NCBI RefSeq assembly: GCF_014217625.1
Contig: NZ_CP043641.1
Span: 3,410,001 to 3,474,000, forward strand
DNA: 64,000 bases
Direction: 5' to 3'
Source: Leifsonia shinshuensis
GTDB lineage: Bacteria; Actinomycetota; Actinomycetes; Actinomycetales; Microbacteriaceae
Each line of letters starts with the position of its first letter. The stretch's first letter is position 1. Below the pieces are notes generated by a model. It did not search any database, had not been told where the DNA came from, and worked only from the letters and a program-made list of their open reading frames with translations. The translations under genes were made by a program, and so were the position numbers. This document shows, piece by piece, positions 19,050 through 60,741 of the stretch.

Positions 19050-19094
19050 GAAGGGAGGACTCCCCGGCCCATCCGGCCGGGAAGTCCTCCCTTC
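19050..19094. terminator. Strong hairpin terminator between MFS and VOC genes
   Basis: Arms GAAGGGAGGACT (19050-19061) and AGTCCTCCCTTC (19083-19094) are perfectly complementary, with further pairing of CCCGG/CCGGG inside. No T-run follows, as is common in actinobacteria. It lies between convergent genes and can serve both strands. Confidence 0.7.
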
Positions 19095-25854: not shown

Positions 25855-25911
25855 CGAGGGGCACGTAAACGCCCCTAAAAGAGTCTTTTGAGGGCGTTTA
25901 CGTGCCCCTCG
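25855..25911. terminator. Long hairpin, member of a dispersed GGGGCAC-GTAAACGCCC palindrome family
   Basis: Arms of 20 bp (25855-25874 and 25892-25911) are perfectly complementary; each holds CGAGGGGCACGTAAACGCCC or its complement. The loop is CTAAAAGAGTCTTTTGA, itself partly self-complementary. It lies between convergent genes (MarR and SHOCT) and can end transcription from both sides. A close relative lies at 60685-60741. Confidence 0.7.
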
Positions 25912-39229: not shown

Positions 39230-40303
39230 GTGATCAGTGGCATGACCGACACCCAGGTGGTGATCGTCGGCGCCGGGCAGGCCGGGCTGGCGGTCGCCTA
39301 CTACCTGCGCCGGTTCGAACTGGTCCCCGGACAGGATTTCGTGATCCTGGACCGCGGCCCGAGCACCGGCGGCGCCTGGCAGCACCGGTGGGACGCCCTG
39401 CGTCTCGGCAGCGCCCACCACGTGAACGACCTCCCGGGAATGGCGGAGCTGGGTCTCAGCTTCGAGACCGCCGACCGCGCCCTCCCGGCCAAGGACATCG
39501 TCGCCGGCTACTACCGCCGCTACGAGGAGCACTACGGCCTCGAGGTGCAGCGTCCTGTGACGGTCTCGCGGGTGTTCGACCGCGGGGCGGACCTGGTCGT
39601 CGCGCATGACCGCGGCGAGACCCGCGCCCGGGTCGTCGTGAACGCGTCGGGCACCTGGGGCGCGCCGTTCATCCCGTGGTACCCGGGGATGAACGACTTC
39701 GCAGGGCGCCACGTGCACACGTCGTCGTACGTGTCGGCGGAGGAGCTGGCGGGCAAGTCGGTCGTGGTGGTCGGCGGCGGCACGAGCGCGATCGGCTTCC
39801 TGCTGGAGCTGGAGGGCGTGGCCGCGAGCCTGACCTGGGCGACGCGTCGCCCCGTGGACTTCCGCAACGAGTCCGAGCTGACGATCGAGGGCGGCGTGGC
39901 CGCGGTCTCCGCCCAGGACGCGGCGGCTCGCGCGGGGCAGGCCCTCCCGAGCATCGTGAGCGGGACGGGCGTGCCCCGCACGCGCCGCGTCGCGGCCGGG
40001 ATCGACCGCGGGCTGCTGGTGGAGCGCGAGATGTTCTCCCGGATCGAGCCCGATGGTGTGGTCTGGTCGGACGGCACGAAGACGAACGCGGACGCGATCA
40101 TCTGGGCGACCGGCTTCCGCCCGGAGCTGCGCCACCTGGCGCCGTTGAAGCTGCGCGAGAAGGCGGGCGGGCTCACGGTGGCCTCCGGCGCGTCGTGGCA
40201 GGACTCCCGGATCTTCCTCGCGGGATACGGACCGCAGGCGAGCACGATCGGCGCGAACCGGGCCGGGCGCGTGATCGCGCGGCAGATCATGGCGCAGATC
40301 TAG
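39230..40303 (+). CDS. Flavin-containing monooxygenase-like protein (CzcO-type)
   Basis: A 357-residue FAD/NAD(P)H-dependent oxidoreductase. The FAD motif is VVIVGAGQAGLAVAYYLRR (near residues 9-27), the NADPH motif is VVVVGGGTSAIGFL, and the C-terminal ATG block is AIIWATGFRPEL. It belongs to the putative flavoproteins involved in K+ transport (CzcO) and small monooxygenases; the substrate is unknown. GTG 39230 or ATG 39242 could be the start. The gene ends where the palindrome array begins. Confidence 0.85.
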   Translation: MISGMTDTQVVIVGAGQAGLAVAYYLRRFELVPGQDFVILDRGPSTGGAWQHRWDALRLGSAHHVNDLPGMAELGLSFETADRALPAKDIVAGYYRRYEEHYGLEVQRPVTVSRVFDRGADLVVAHDRGETRARVVVNASGTWGAPFIPWYPGMNDFAGRHVHTSSYVSAEELAGKSVVVVGGGTSAIGFLLELEGVAASLTWATRRPVDFRNESELTIEGGVAAVSAQDAAARAGQALPSIVSGTGVPRTRRVAAGIDRGLLVEREMFSRIEPDGVVWSDGTKTNADAIIWATGFRPELRHLAPLKLREKAGGLTVASGASWQDSRIFLAGYGPQASTIGANRAGRVIARQIMAQI

Positions 40304-40315
40304 GCGTGCCACGCC

Positions 40316-40760
40316 GCCGACATTCGTGCCGAATGTCGGCTTTGCGCGTTCGGTAGCCGCGATTCGTACCGAATGTGGGGTCCGTTCGGGCGTGCGGGGG
40401 GGCGCCGACATTCGTGCCGAATGTCGACTCTGCGCGGCGGAGAGGCGCGATTCATGCCGAATGTGCGTGCGTTCGTGGAGTGCGACGGCGGGCATTCGTG
40501 CCGAATGTCGACTCTGCGCGGCGGAGAGGCGCGATTCGTGCCGAATGTGCGTGCGTTCGTGGAGTGCGACGGCGGGCATTCGTGCCGAATGTCCGCTTTG
40601 CGCGTGCGGGAGCCGCGATTCGTGCTGAATGTGCGTGCGTTCGTGGAGTGCGACGGCGGGCATTCGTGCCGAATGTCCGCTTTGCGCGTTCGGTAGCCGC
40701 GATTCGTGCCGAATGTCGACGTCCACGCGCGGGGGTGCGGGGTCGGCATTCGGCACGAAC
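40316..40760. repeat. Array of eleven ATTCG-TGC-CGAAT palindromes with alternating 27- and 31-bp spacers
   Basis: The 13-bp palindrome ATTCGTGCCGAAT or a one- or two-base variant starts at 40322, 40362, 40410, 40450, 40494, 40534, 40578, 40618, 40662 and 40702, and in reversed orientation (ATTCGGCACGAAC) at 40748. Start-to-start distances alternate 40/48/40/44/40/44/40/44/40/46, giving an 84-bp higher-order repeat of two palindromes. Short spacers share GTC-CTNTGCGCG...GCGCG-type sequence; three long spacers are identical for 31 bp. The first copy extends to a 25-bp palindrome with 11-bp arms. It fills the 465-bp gap between convergent genes. Open frames across it are repeat artefacts, since 84 is a multiple of 3. 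Confidence 0.92.
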
Positions 40761-40768
40761 GGCGCGGG

Positions 40769-43621
40769 TCAGACCTCCAGGTCGCGGGGTGCGCCCGCGA
40801 AGCGGAGGCCGCTCACGCGGATGCTGCCGGCGCCGGGGGTGGGGCGCACGTCGAGTGAGCCGGCCTGGGCGTCGGCGCGGAGGCCGAGGCGGGCCGAGAG
40901 GACGGCGACCGCGGCGGCCGCCGACCACGCCTGCGGGCGGCAAGCGGCCGGGTAGGGGATCGGCGCGCTGGTCTGCTCTGCCGAGTCGCCGGAGTGCAGC
41001 TCGGGCATCCGGTAGCTGAAGCCGTCCGCGGCGGCGAGCAGGCCGTCGGCGAGGAGGTCGGCCTCCGCGGTGTGGCCGTCGCGCGACAGCCCCATGATCG
41101 CGATCGCGGTGTCGTGCGCCCAGACCGAGCCGCCGTGGTAGCTGAGCGGCCAGTAGCCTCCGGAGTCGGTCGACATGGTGCGGAGGCCGTAGCCGGAGGA
41201 CAGCTCGGGCGACGCCAGGCGGCGCGCGATCAGCGCCGACTGCTCGGGTGTGAGGATGCCGGTGCCGAGCAGGTGGCCGATGTTGCTGGTGACGGTGTCG
41301 ACCTTGCGCTTGGCGGCGTCGAGCGCGACGGCGGGGTAGGCGCCCGCCGGGTCGTCGATCCAGAACGCGGCGTCGAAGCGGGTCTTGAGCTCCGCGGCCC
41401 AGTCGCGCCACTCGTCGCCGCCCTCCAGACCGAACGCGTCGAGCAGCTCGGCGCCGCCGACCGCCGCCTCGTAGGCGTAGCCCTGGACCTCGCAGAGCGC
41501 GATCGGGCCGTCCGCGAGCGTGCCGTCCTTCCACTGGATGGAGTCTCCCGAGTCCTTCCAGCCCTGGTTCGCGAGGCCGTGGCCGGTGGTGTCGACGTAC
41601 TCCAGGAAGCCGTCGCCGTCGCTGTCGCCGTGATCCCGCATCCAGGCGAGCGCCGCCTGCATGGCGGGGAGCAGCTCGCGCACCTCGTCGTCGGCCATGC
41701 CCCACTTCCACGCATCGTGCAGGAGCCCGATCCAGAGCGCGGTCGCGTCGACGGTGCCGTAGTAGAGCGGCGGCAGGACGACGCCCTCGCCCGGGATGGT
41801 GAGGGCTGCCGGACGCAGCTCGTGCATGATCTTGCCGGGCTGCTCGGCCGTCTCGGAGACGGTCTCCGTGCCCTGGAAGTGCGCCAGCACGCGGAGGGTC
41901 GAGGCGGCGATGTCGGTGCCGAGCGGAAGCAGCAGGCGCGCGGCCCAGAGCGAGTCGCGGCCGAACAGCGTGAAGAACCACGGGGCTCCGGCGGCGAGGA
42001 AGGTGTCGTCCGGCCGCGCGGTGGTCGACATGCGCAGCGACTGGAGGTCGGCGAGCGCGCGGTCGAGCCAGGAGGCCAGCCGGGAGTCGCCGGTGGACGC
42101 GCGGAACGCGGCCCACTCGGCCGACGGGGCGGCGCCCGCGACGACCGCGGTGGGGTCGTCGACGTCGATGGCCCAGTCGAGGGTGACGTGGCCGTGGGCG
42201 GGCACGTCGATCTCCCAGCGGAGGGCGGCGTCCTGGCCGTCGACCGAGACGCGCGCGTCGGGGGCGGCCAGAGTCGCGGTCACAGGTCCGGAGCGGAAGA
42301 CGATGCGGCCATTGGCCGACTCGCTCGACACCGGATGTTCGGCGCCCGTCAGTCCCGCCTTGATCGTCTGCATCGGCGTGAAGTCGGCGCGCACCGCGAC
42401 CTCGACCGTCGTCGTGATCGGGGTGCGGAGGGCGTTGCGCACGACGATCCGCTCCCGCAGGCTCCCCGCCACGACCGTGCGCGTGCGGTCCAGCCGGACG
42501 CGGGGGTCGGCCGTGGCATCGTCGATCCGCCGGGCGAGCGCGGTGAAGACGGCGCTCGCCGCGTCGGGGCCGGCCGTGGCGATGTGCTCGGGCACGTCGC
42601 CGCCGACGGTCAGGAGGATGCGGTCGAGCACCCGGAGGTCCGAGTGGTAGAACCCGTGGATCCCGCCGCCGTCGACGGCGCCGTCCGCGGCGGACCAGGC
42701 TTGGCTGGGCGCGGTGAGCACCACGACGCTGTCGTGCAGCAGGGGTTGGAGCGGCTGGGTCATCGTGGCGTTCGCGCCTCCTCGATCGTGGATGGGGTGG
42801 GGGTCGGGGTGGTTGTGGGGGACGGGGTCGTAGTGGGGGATGGGGTCGTGATGGGGGATGGGATGGAGGAGGTGGCGGGGGGACGGCAGCACCCGCGGCT
42901 CGATGCGCGTCTCGCTGATCACCGCCCGTCCATCGACCTCGGTGCGCAGGATGCGCCACACGGCCGCGTCCTCCCGCTCCGAGACGATCTCCACCAGCGT
43001 CGTGCCTCGGTAGACCAGCCCGGTGCCTTCCTCGAGCGCATACCCCTCGGGCAGCTCACCCGACGCGACCGCCGCCTGATGCGCAGGCCGGCGTCGCGGG
43101 TCCGAGTCGTAGTGGACCGCGAGCGATCCCGGTACCAGCCCGAGACCGTCGGGGAGTGCGGAGATGTCCGGCCCGCGCGAGGCGGTCGTGCCGCCTTCGT
43201 GCCAGCACAGGCCGCCGGCCGACCCGCCTGCGAGGACGACGCCGCGCTGCCACGCCTCCCGCAGGATCTCGTCCAGCCCGTGCGCGCGCCAGACGGCGAG
43301 GAGATTGAGCAGGCTCCCGCCACTGACCCACACCACGTCCTGGGCGAGGATGTGCTCGCGGAGGTCGGGGATGTTCGGGTGCGGGAAGAAGCGCACGTGC
43401 GACGCGTCGACCCCGGCCGCACGTGCAGCCTCCAGCTCGCCGCCTTCGACGTGCCGCTGGTCGCCGCCCGCCGTGTTGATGTGCGTCACGCGCGGCGCGC
43501 GGCCGGTGACCCGGGCGAGCTCGATCGCATGGTGGAGGAGCGGACCGTAGAGGGAGTCCGTCCACTCTCCGGCGACCAGGCCGCCGCAGGTGGCCAGGAT
43601 GGTCGGTGCGATGGCCGTCAC
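40769..43621 (-). CDS. Peptidase E-like domain joined in frame to a glycogen-debranching-type glycosidase
   Basis: One uninterrupted 950-codon frame. Residues 1-243 form a peptidase S51/PepE-like protein: nucleophile Ser134 in LAGGSAGGLCWHEGG, likely His170 in LAVHYDSD. Residues 244-286 are a His/Pro-rich linker (HPIPHHDPIPHYDPVPHN). From Met287 (ATG 42763) follows a 664-residue glycosidase: an amylo-alpha-1,6-glucosidase N-terminal domain (GFYHSDLRVLDR) and an (alpha/alpha)6 barrel with FTLFGRDSLWAARLLLPLG, DGDGFLEYV, NQGWKDSGDSI and LCEVQGYAYEA. GTG 43621 overlaps the permease stop (GTGA). A GAGGAGG sequence (42777-42783) 13 nt before ATG 42763 would allow separate translation of the glycosidase. 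It may be a true fusion or two genes whose stop codon was lost. The role is probably trimming of imported oligosaccharides. Confidence 0.82.
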   Translation of the reverse strand: MTAIAPTILATCGGLVAGEWTDSLYGPLLHHAIELARVTGRAPRVTHINTAGGDQRHVEGGELEAARAAGVDASHVRFFPHPNIPDLREHILAQDVVWVSGGSLLNLLAVWRAHGLDEILREAWQRGVVLAGGSAGGLCWHEGGTTASRGPDISALPDGLGLVPGSLAVHYDSDPRRRPAHQAAVASGELPEGYALEEGTGLVYRGTTLVEIVSEREDAAVWRILRTEVDGRAVISETRIEPRVLPSPRHLLHPIPHHDPIPHYDPVPHNHPDPHPIHDRGGANATMTQPLQPLLHDSVVVLTAPSQAWSAADGAVDGGGIHGFYHSDLRVLDRILLTVGGDVPEHIATAGPDAASAVFTALARRIDDATADPRVRLDRTRTVVAGSLRERIVVRNALRTPITTTVEVAVRADFTPMQTIKAGLTGAEHPVSSESANGRIVFRSGPVTATLAAPDARVSVDGQDAALRWEIDVPAHGHVTLDWAIDVDDPTAVVAGAAPSAEWAAFRASTGDSRLASWLDRALADLQSLRMSTTARPDDTFLAAGAPWFFTLFGRDSLWAARLLLPLGTDIAASTLRVLAHFQGTETVSETAEQPGKIMHELRPAALTIPGEGVVLPPLYYGTVDATALWIGLLHDAWKWGMADDEVRELLPAMQAALAWMRDHGDSDGDGFLEYVDTTGHGLANQGWKDSGDSIQWKDGTLADGPIALCEVQGYAYEAAVGGAELLDAFGLEGGDEWRDWAAELKTRFDAAFWIDDPAGAYPAVALDAAKRKVDTVTSNIGHLLGTGILTPEQSALIARRLASPELSSGYGLRTMSTDSGGYWPLSYHGGSVWAHDTAIAIMGLSRDGHTAEADLLADGLLAAADGFSYRMPELHSGDSAEQTSAPIPYPAACRPQAWSAAAAVAVLSARLGLRADAQAGSLDVRPTPGAGSIRVSGLRFAGAPRDLEV
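42812..42865. repeat. Three 18-bp G-rich tandem repeats in the PepE-glycosidase junction
   Basis: Units GTTGTGGGGGACGGGGTC, GTAGTGGGGGATGGGGTC and GTGATGGGGGATGGGATG follow one another (plus-strand reading) and encode the HDP-IPH-type linker on the minus strand. Flanking DNA (42790-42811 and 42866-42883) continues the same G-rich pattern. Runs of four or five G on the template strand could form a G-quadruplex. The repeat may have arisen by slippage and may explain loss of a stop codon. Confidence 0.75.
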
Positions 43622-60684: not shown

Positions 60685-60741
60685 CGAAGGGCACCCAAAC
60701 GCCCCTAAAACCGGGTTTTAGGGGCGTTTGCGTGCCCCTCG
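60685..60741. terminator. Long hairpin, second member of the GGGGCAC-AAACGCCCC family
   Basis: Arms 60685-60711 and 60715-60741 pair over 27 bp with two mismatches around a 3-base loop. Shared with the hairpin at 25855-25911 are the pieces GGGGCACG, AAACGCCC and CTAAAA. It follows the RND stop codon by 10 bp and precedes the arginase-family gene on the same strand. Confidence 0.7.

What the first reader, a model, noticed from the sequence alone, without database searches (positions are those of the whole stretch)
40316..40760. Array of eleven palindromes with an 84-bp period and alternating spacers
Seen directly: ATTCG-TGC-CGAAT or a close variant recurs eleven times with start distances 40/48/40/44/40/44/40/44/40/46. 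Three 31-bp spacers are identical and the 27-bp spacers fall into two or three related types. The last copy is in reversed orientation, and the first has 11-bp arms. The layout (pairs of palindromes, alternate spacers, gap between convergent genes) resembles a mosaic REP/BIME element or a protein-binding array, not a CRISPR. It could bind a nucleoid or segregation protein, act as a bidirectional transcription stop, or be a substrate of a RAYT-like transposase. No such protein gene is in the window.
Basis: partly seen in the sequence, partly recalled or inferred. Interest (0 to 1): 0.75.

Follow-up and report, generated by a model that had tools for sequence, protein, structure and literature searches.

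The report
Gene-end hairpin repeats with nuclease partners
The eleven palindromes are a local run of a hairpin repeat found at gene ends across this bacterium's chromosome, and the same repeat brackets the gene of an unusual DNA-cutting enzyme, which suggests a new way for repeats to spread in bacteria.

Summary
The array is five 53-bp units (two ATTCG-NNN-CGAAT palindromes exactly 40 bp apart) plus one lone palindrome. The genome holds 236 such palindromes. The repeat is nearly confined to one genus, Leifsonia, with 0-459 copies per genome, and sits just after stop codons, mostly between convergent genes. No Y1/RAYT transposase was found in the 28 genomes of the genus searched. Instead, units bracket a gene elsewhere on the chromosome, encoding an AbiEi-like part fused to a Vsr/EDxHD-type nuclease, whose last codons lie inside the hairpin. 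Its paralogues are mostly bracketed by hairpin families of their own: 78 of 91 nuclease genes against 2 of 503 controls, one of the two itself a nuclease. The 22 genomes with the gene plus an ATTCG- or ATTTG-type hairpin hold 22 or more copies; the other six hold 0-4. It works like REPIN/RAYT but fails two of its defining features. That the nuclease spreads the hairpins is inferred, not shown; so is any termination role. The papers searched describe no such pairing.

The parts
40304..40768 (.). convergent intergenic gap holding the array
   Evidence: gene stops at 40303 (+) and 40769 (-)
40322..40374 (+). F1 unit 1 (two palindromes 40 bp apart; second has loop TAC)
40410..40462 (+). F1 unit 2 (second palindrome ATTCATGCCGAAT)
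40494..40546 (+). F1 unit 3
40578..40630 (+). F1 unit 4 (second palindrome ATTCGTGCTGAAT)
40662..40714 (+). F1 unit 5
40748..40760 (-). lone F1 palindrome in the opposite orientation
40321..40716 (+). 84-bp tandem duplication of (unit + 31-bp linker)
   Evidence: TRF
25855..25911 (.). 57-bp hairpin of a second family (F2a, CGAGGGGCACGTAAACGCCCC), 3 nt after a stop codon in a convergent gap; the nuclease gene bracketed by this family is at G000:C1:3512788-3513720, outside the window
60685..60741 (.). 57-bp hairpin of family F2a, 10 nt after a stop codon

Best explanation
The array is a tandemly expanded copy of a non-autonomous, REPIN-like hairpin element (F1: a 53-bp doublet of 13-bp palindromes). 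It belongs to a system in which an immobile, vertically inherited nuclease gene (AbiEi-like DNA-binding part + Vsr/EDxHD PD-(D/E)XK nuclease) is bracketed by the same hairpin. Proposed working: the AbiEi-like part recognises the inverted repeats, the nuclease part cuts or nicks the hairpin or its target, and repair copies the hairpin into gene ends, so copies spread and are homogenised within each genome; at the gene ends they are tolerated or useful as 3'-end structures. SHOWN: the units, spacing and gene-end placement; genome-wide spread and turnover at orthologous gaps; bracketing of the nuclease gene and most of its paralogues; tracking of copy number with the gene; purifying selection on the gene; likeness of units within a genome; predicted fold. 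INFERRED: that the nuclease binds and cuts the hairpin, that this drives copying, and any benefit at gene ends.
Against: No insertion event with clean ends or target duplication was caught. Five genomes hold 27-95 ATTCG palindromes although their gene's own hairpins are ATTTG-type (G003, G013, G019, G025) or a decayed form of it (G001). ATTTG units occur without an ATTTG nuclease seen in G016 (16), G009 (11) and G026 (8). The gene in G011, which has 40 copies, is split over two frames. 13 of 91 nuclease genes show no bracket at the threshold; 17 of 58 long hairpins match no nuclease hairpin of their genome. The hairpin beside the nuclease is not consistently closest to its own genome's units (ranks 1, 1, 2, 2, 3, 3, 4, 4, 8 of 16). 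PD-(D/E)XK nucleases hydrolyse DNA and have no strand-transfer chemistry that I know of (recalled). The presence/absence data share phylogeny.
Confidence: 0.62

Rival explanations
1. The hairpins are kept at gene ends by selection, as transcription terminators or 3'-end RNA protectors, and spread by ordinary recombination. The nuclease gene is one more gene in a gap full of such hairpins and plays no part in their spread.
For: Strong 3'-end placement: of 32 clusters 21 lie in convergent gaps, 8 in tandem, 1 in divergent, 2 unclassified, usually about 10 nt after a stop. Orthologous gaps often hold a hairpin of another family.
Against: Control genes are almost never bracketed (2 of 503). Copy number follows presence of the gene with its hairpin. 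Families with long shared arms in dozens to hundreds of copies need a copying process. No U-tract terminator in the array.
Confidence: 0.17
2. The palindromes are a dsDNA binding array for a nucleoid or segregation protein. The 40-bp (and in some species 20-bp) spacing puts sites on one face of the helix.
For: 40-bp spacing holds even where the spacer pairs no better than shuffled (CL147 0.40 against 0.43). G009-type units carry a third palindrome at 20 bp. In G000 the spacer keeps A/T triplets rather than strong covariation (0.58 against 0.535, 33 of 2000 shuffles).
Against: Other families on the same plan (F2a, F2b, F3) lack the inner 13-bp palindromes yet bracket paralogous nucleases. Near-complete absence in six congeners. 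Placement follows stop codons.
Confidence: 0.08
3. The nuclease plus hairpins is a conflict or defence module: hairpins mark self DNA or titrate and regulate the nuclease, and the spread of hairpins is a by-product.
For: AbiEi-like and Vsr-like parts occur in phage-defence and restriction proteins (PMC3710099 passages; PMC7319586 abstract).
Against: No adjacent AbiEii-like toxin gene was seen at the F1 locus, where the neighbours (named by eye) are an epimerase and an acyl-CoA ligase. The F1 gene stays at one site across the genus.
Confidence: 0.08
4. Canonical REP/REPIN mobilised by a RAYT (Y1 transposase).
For: Doublet of palindromes, fixed spacing, tandem clusters, extragenic placement, as described for REPINs (PMC3116915 passages).
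Against: PF01797 gives 0 matches in G000 and the 27 congeners, while the control rings in 5 of 14 genomes. No GTAG tag in the flank profile.
Confidence: 0.02
5. Local tandem duplication without wider meaning.
For: The 84-bp period is a tandem duplication, and the ortholog in G027 has a single unit.
Against: 236 palindromes genome-wide, control 0.
Confidence: 0.02

Closest known systems
REPIN/REP doublets with RAYT (TnpA-REP) transposases
   Same: Extragenic palindrome doublets at fixed spacing, tandem clusters, a single-copy enzyme gene beside its cognate repeats, several families each with its own enzyme (PMC3116915, PMC3733652, PMC8266576: passages).
   Different: Enzyme fold and chemistry unrelated (AbiEi + Vsr/EDxHD, not HUH-Y1); no GTAG tag; the gene's last codons lie inside the hairpin; Microbacteriaceae; strong bias to convergent gene ends.
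CGTC-tagged REPs
   Same: Palindromic repeats said to lack a dedicated transposase (PMC3733652, abstract passage), so RAYT-less palindromic repeats as such are known.
   Different: No CGTC tag in the flank profile here; no nuclease partner is mentioned in the passages seen.
Vsr / EDxHD homing endonucleases (Vsr, I-Bth0305I)
   Different: Fused to an AbiEi-like part; not intron-borne at the loci seen; bracketed by dispersed hairpins.
AbiEi antitoxins (type IV toxin-antitoxin)
   Different: No partner toxin gene seen at the F1 locus; nuclease domain at the C-terminus.
MITEs
   Same: Short, inverted-repeat, non-autonomous, high copy.
   Different: No target duplication seen; about 53-60 bp in all; no parent element with a DDE transposase identified (not searched).
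Neisseria uptake-sequence pairs that double as terminators (recalled)
   Same: Repeat-derived hairpins at gene ends.
   Different: Fixed 40-bp spacing, families tied to a nuclease gene.

Membership tests
REPIN/RAYT | palindromes as inverted doublets at a fixed distance | tested here: met
   40-bp start distance; 102 exact units in G000; 146 neighbour pairs at 40 in loci selected for it; 40 is the commonest distance in the unselected list
REPIN/RAYT | RAYT (Y1_Tnp, PF01797) encoded in the genome | tested here: not met
   0 of 28 genomes of the genus; control rings in 5 of 14
REPIN/RAYT | GTAG (or CGTC) tag at one end of the palindrome | tested here: not met
   flank profile of 54 isolated units shows GAC..GTC, no such tag
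REPIN/RAYT | immobile enzyme gene flanked by cognate repeats | tested here: met
   met with another enzyme:
REPIN/RAYT | enzyme cleaves single-stranded repeat | not testable with these tools
   needs biochemistry
MITE | target-site duplication | tested here: inconclusive
   no clean filled/empty pair
MITE | parent element with a DDE transposase and the same ends | not tested
   only PF01797 and the nuclease family were searched for
CRISPR | unique spacers between direct repeats | tested here: not met
   31-bp linkers identical three times
Intrinsic terminator | GC hairpin followed by a T-run | tested here: not met
   0 found in 40200-40900
Vsr/EDxHD nuclease (enzyme) | fold and E-D-H-D residues | tested here: met
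   the motif name is recalled; PF18741 E 7e-8 but below its curated cut-off
AbiE toxin-antitoxin | AbiEii nucleotidyltransferase toxin beside the AbiEi-like gene | tested here: inconclusive
   at the F1 locus the neighbours read by eye are an epimerase and an acyl-CoA ligase; no family search for the toxin was run
matS/Noc/parS-like chromosome-domain site | distribution biased along the replication axis | tested here: inconclusive
   unit list cut at 2.91 Mb; origin not located

The most novel reading that the evidence does not exclude
A family of AbiEi-Vsr fusion nucleases, widespread in Microbacteriaceae, is a second, independently evolved class of repeat-associated enzyme: each paralogue spreads its own 53-60-bp hairpin family to gene ends by hydrolytic cutting and repair (a hairpin 'homing' system), switching specificity together with its hairpins (ATTCG to ATTTG at one orthologous locus).
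Probability: 0.5. Interest if true: 0.93.

Novelty: categorically new. Interest (0 to 1): 0.86.

Why it matters
Many short palindromes in bacterial genomes are explained by RAYT transposases; how such repeats arise in lineages without RAYTs is open. Here the repeats come with a candidate enzyme of unrelated fold, in many paralogous pairs, which makes the question testable: binding and cutting assays, specificity comparisons between families, and evolution with and without the gene. It would also give a job to a large set of proteins now named only 'DUF559' or 'very-short-patch-repair endonuclease', and it shows that hairpins at bacterial gene ends can be replaced wholesale between related species.

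Tried and rejected
RAYT: rejected. Rfam: no match. U-tract terminator: none. Strong covariation in the F1 spacer: my first impression, not borne out (0.58 against 0.535, which stopped with an error after four groups: CL147 0.40 against 0.43, CAMFLC 0.67 against 0.71, 71-9 0.67 against 0.55, G000 0.60 against 0.55); other families not tested. A GNAT gene between two units in G021 (L037) looked like a candidate enzyme but seems an ordinary neighbour (read by eye). The first 400-kb comparison of G000 and G027 failed because the regions were not orthologous. Target duplications: none clear. Ori/ter bias: not settled. Literature: the ten searches (open-access library only) gave no paper linking DUF559, MTES_1575 or Vsr-like genes to dispersed palindromes; the ones aimed at this were 55, 61, 87 and 88; subscription papers and preprints were not searched. 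The pdb_via list also shows other PD-(D/E)XK, mitoribosomal and nucleotidyltransferase chains, not taken as close relatives.

Rows dropped or limits: one search used 64 of the G000 units (one search counts 103 and lists only the first; tandem near-copies left out) and kept 43 after removing near-identical spacers. One search kept 91 of 110 nuclease loci (19 weak or incomplete); its gene ends come from the profile match, those of the controls from my gene caller. One search used 70 of the 91 (those with a detected hairpin). One search kept one unit per cluster (162) and left out the L. shinshuensis named loci. One search left 9 of 80 arrays unclassified. The F1 clusters include those beside the F1 nuclease. 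Similarity of protein and hairpin (69 of 90 pairs at 65% or more identity share a hairpin, 0 of 1832 below 45%) is largely shared descent of gene and flank and is not counted as proof. Weak matches in G004, G007 and G022 were not all looked at. My confidence in the best explanation was lowered from 0.64 to 0.62 on re-reading, because the five genomes with ATTCG copies but ATTTG-type genes weigh against it.

Full report
WHAT IS IN THE WINDOW. They resolve into five 53-bp units, each two ATTCG-NNN-CGAAT palindromes (or one-mismatch variants) exactly 40 bp apart, repeated with an 84-bp period (88 between the first two), plus a lone reversed palindrome. The window also holds two 57-bp hairpins of another family, F2a (25855-25911, 60685-60741), 3 and 10 nt after stop codons. 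No Rfam family and no U-tract terminator match in 40200-40900.

GENOME AND GENUS. The palindrome occurs 236 times in this genome (reversed control 0), and 0 to 459 times in the 27 congeners searched; nine other genera of the family show 0-5 matches. The 53-bp unit is found in 9 of 398 family genomes, all 9 in the window's genus, of which 10 were drawn. That the window's genus is Leifsonia follows from equal contig lengths, for example G021:C1 and NZ_JACHVP010000001.1, both 2058765 bases.

WHERE THE UNITS SIT. In 2 Mb of sequence from three genomes (five 400-kb stretches, three of them centred on the window's gap), 32 F1 clusters fall 21 in convergent, 8 in tandem and 1 in divergent gaps and 2 unclassified, while gaps number 327, 1123 and 328 (own gene caller). 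Typical distance to a stop codon is about 10 nt. Among 80 arrays in named loci, selected for having the unit, the split is 39, 26, 6 and 9 unclassified.

TURNOVER. At the same gap as in the window, 23 congeners could be compared: F1 is present in two (G023, an eight-palindrome array; G027, one unit), while others carry hairpins of other families, plain hairpins or almost no gap. Across convergent gaps of G000, G023 and G027 (about 88% identity) families replace one another. De novo search found many hairpin families; 80 of 82 strong hairpins in the 2 Mb lie outside genes (lists). The window array therefore looks like one F1 unit expanded by tandem duplication.

THE NUCLEASE. Two F1 clusters about 1 kb apart flank the same gene in several species. 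Its last codons read through the palindrome (..RFVPNV..). Two other families, F2a and F10, flank paralogues in the same way. Pfam shows REase_MTES_1575 below its cut-off in all three proteins and DUF559 above its cut-off in one of three; NCBIfam shows nothing for two. A profile search finds matches in 27 of 28 genomes of the genus; the one without, G018, has no F1. Of 110 loci, 91 hold a strong and complete gene: 78 have the same sequence at both ends (score 16 or more) against 2 of 503 control genes, one of the two being the F2 nuclease. Some genes without a detected hairpin still have one on inspection, for example L346 and L414. In loci from other genera of the family 15 of 28 have it. The family occurs in 80 of 120 family genomes and 135 of 246 class genomes at the thresholds used.

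COUPLING. The F1 gene lies at one orthologous site, between genes that I read by eye as an epimerase and an acyl-CoA ligase, in all 22 F1- or ATTTG-type loci examined (in L318 only the epimerase side was held), so the gene stays while its hairpins spread. These 22 genomes all hold 22 or more F1 palindromes. The six others hold 0-4: no gene was seen at this site in four, G006 has a copy split over two frames between decayed F1-like pairs, G012 a copy without such hairpins. In G003, G013, G019 and G025 the gene's hairpins are ATTTG...CAAAT (G001 a decayed form); these five still hold 27-95 ATTCG palindromes. I expected ATTTG units to abound where the gene has them: three of the four are the top three of 28 (36, 36, 31), the fourth has 1, and three genomes without such a gene seen have 16, 11 and 8, the rest 0-3. 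F2a arms occur in six genomes plus a single match in G023, F2b arms in five, and in none of the others. In the samples 41 of 58 long hairpins match a hairpin beside one of that genome's own nucleases (16 of 19, 8 of 13, 17 of 26). Spacers are more alike within than between genomes (0.607 against 0.478; 0 of 2000 permutations), which fits copying within lineages; but the hairpin beside the nuclease is first among 16 genomes for its own units in only two of nine cases.

MECHANISM. Most likely the protein recognises the inverted repeats of its hairpin and cuts it or its target, and repair copies the hairpin into gene ends. Only the association is shown. The 40-bp spacing, kept even where the spacer pairs poorly, could reflect two bound dimers on one helical face or a hairpin of fixed length; the data do not decide.

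COMPARISON AND NOVELTY. It works like REPIN/RAYT but is not a member: no Y1 enzyme and no GTAG tag. Palindromic repeats without a dedicated transposase are known (CGTC REPs, PMC3733652 passage); the pairing with an enzyme of another fold is what I did not find described. MTES_1575-type nuclease domains are described in large restriction-like fusions (PMC3710099 passages). I rate the pairing categorically new because the enzyme is unrelated to HUH transposases and could not work by the same chemistry; if the nuclease proves irrelevant to spread, this falls to a new variant of a known kind.

Noticed in passing
window 40772-43621 (-): The glycogen-debranching-like ORF also carries a Peptidase_S51 domain upstream in the same reading frame, an unusual fusion or two joined genes.
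   Followed up: no
window 19050-19094: 45-bp hairpin GAAGGGAGGACTCCCC.. resembling a further dispersed family (AACGGAGGA..) seen in G000, G023 and G027; no cognate nuclease seen for it.
   Followed up: partly
G000 units: Spacers keep A/T triplets at positions 19-21 and 31-33, giving roughly 10-bp phased A/T triplets through the unit in a GC-rich genome.
   Followed up: partly
G009 units, G014 and G005 nuclease loci L331 and L334: Some species have a third palindrome in the middle of the unit, so palindromes are 20 bp apart; CL147 (G015) has regular 40-bp lattices.
   Followed up: no
isolated units in named loci: Sequence before a unit is C-rich and after it G-rich for about 15 or more bases on both strands.
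   Followed up: no
L115 (Bacteroidia MAG contig), L061 (Microbacterium sp. 18062): F1 unit outside Leifsonia; L115 may be a mis-binned contig, L061 a transfer.
   Followed up: no
G000:C1 about 1.96-2.5 Mb: Only one exact unit in this stretch in the list; may reflect a bias along the replication axis.
   Followed up: no
L403-L411: A more distant paralogue (56-82 bits) occurs in many congeners, with a repeat at both ends in some of these loci only.
   Followed up: partly
G000b offset 31170 and its G027 ortholog: In G027 the neighbouring gene's stop codon appears to lie inside an F1 unit, as in the nuclease genes: arrival at the stop may extend the protein.
   Followed up: no
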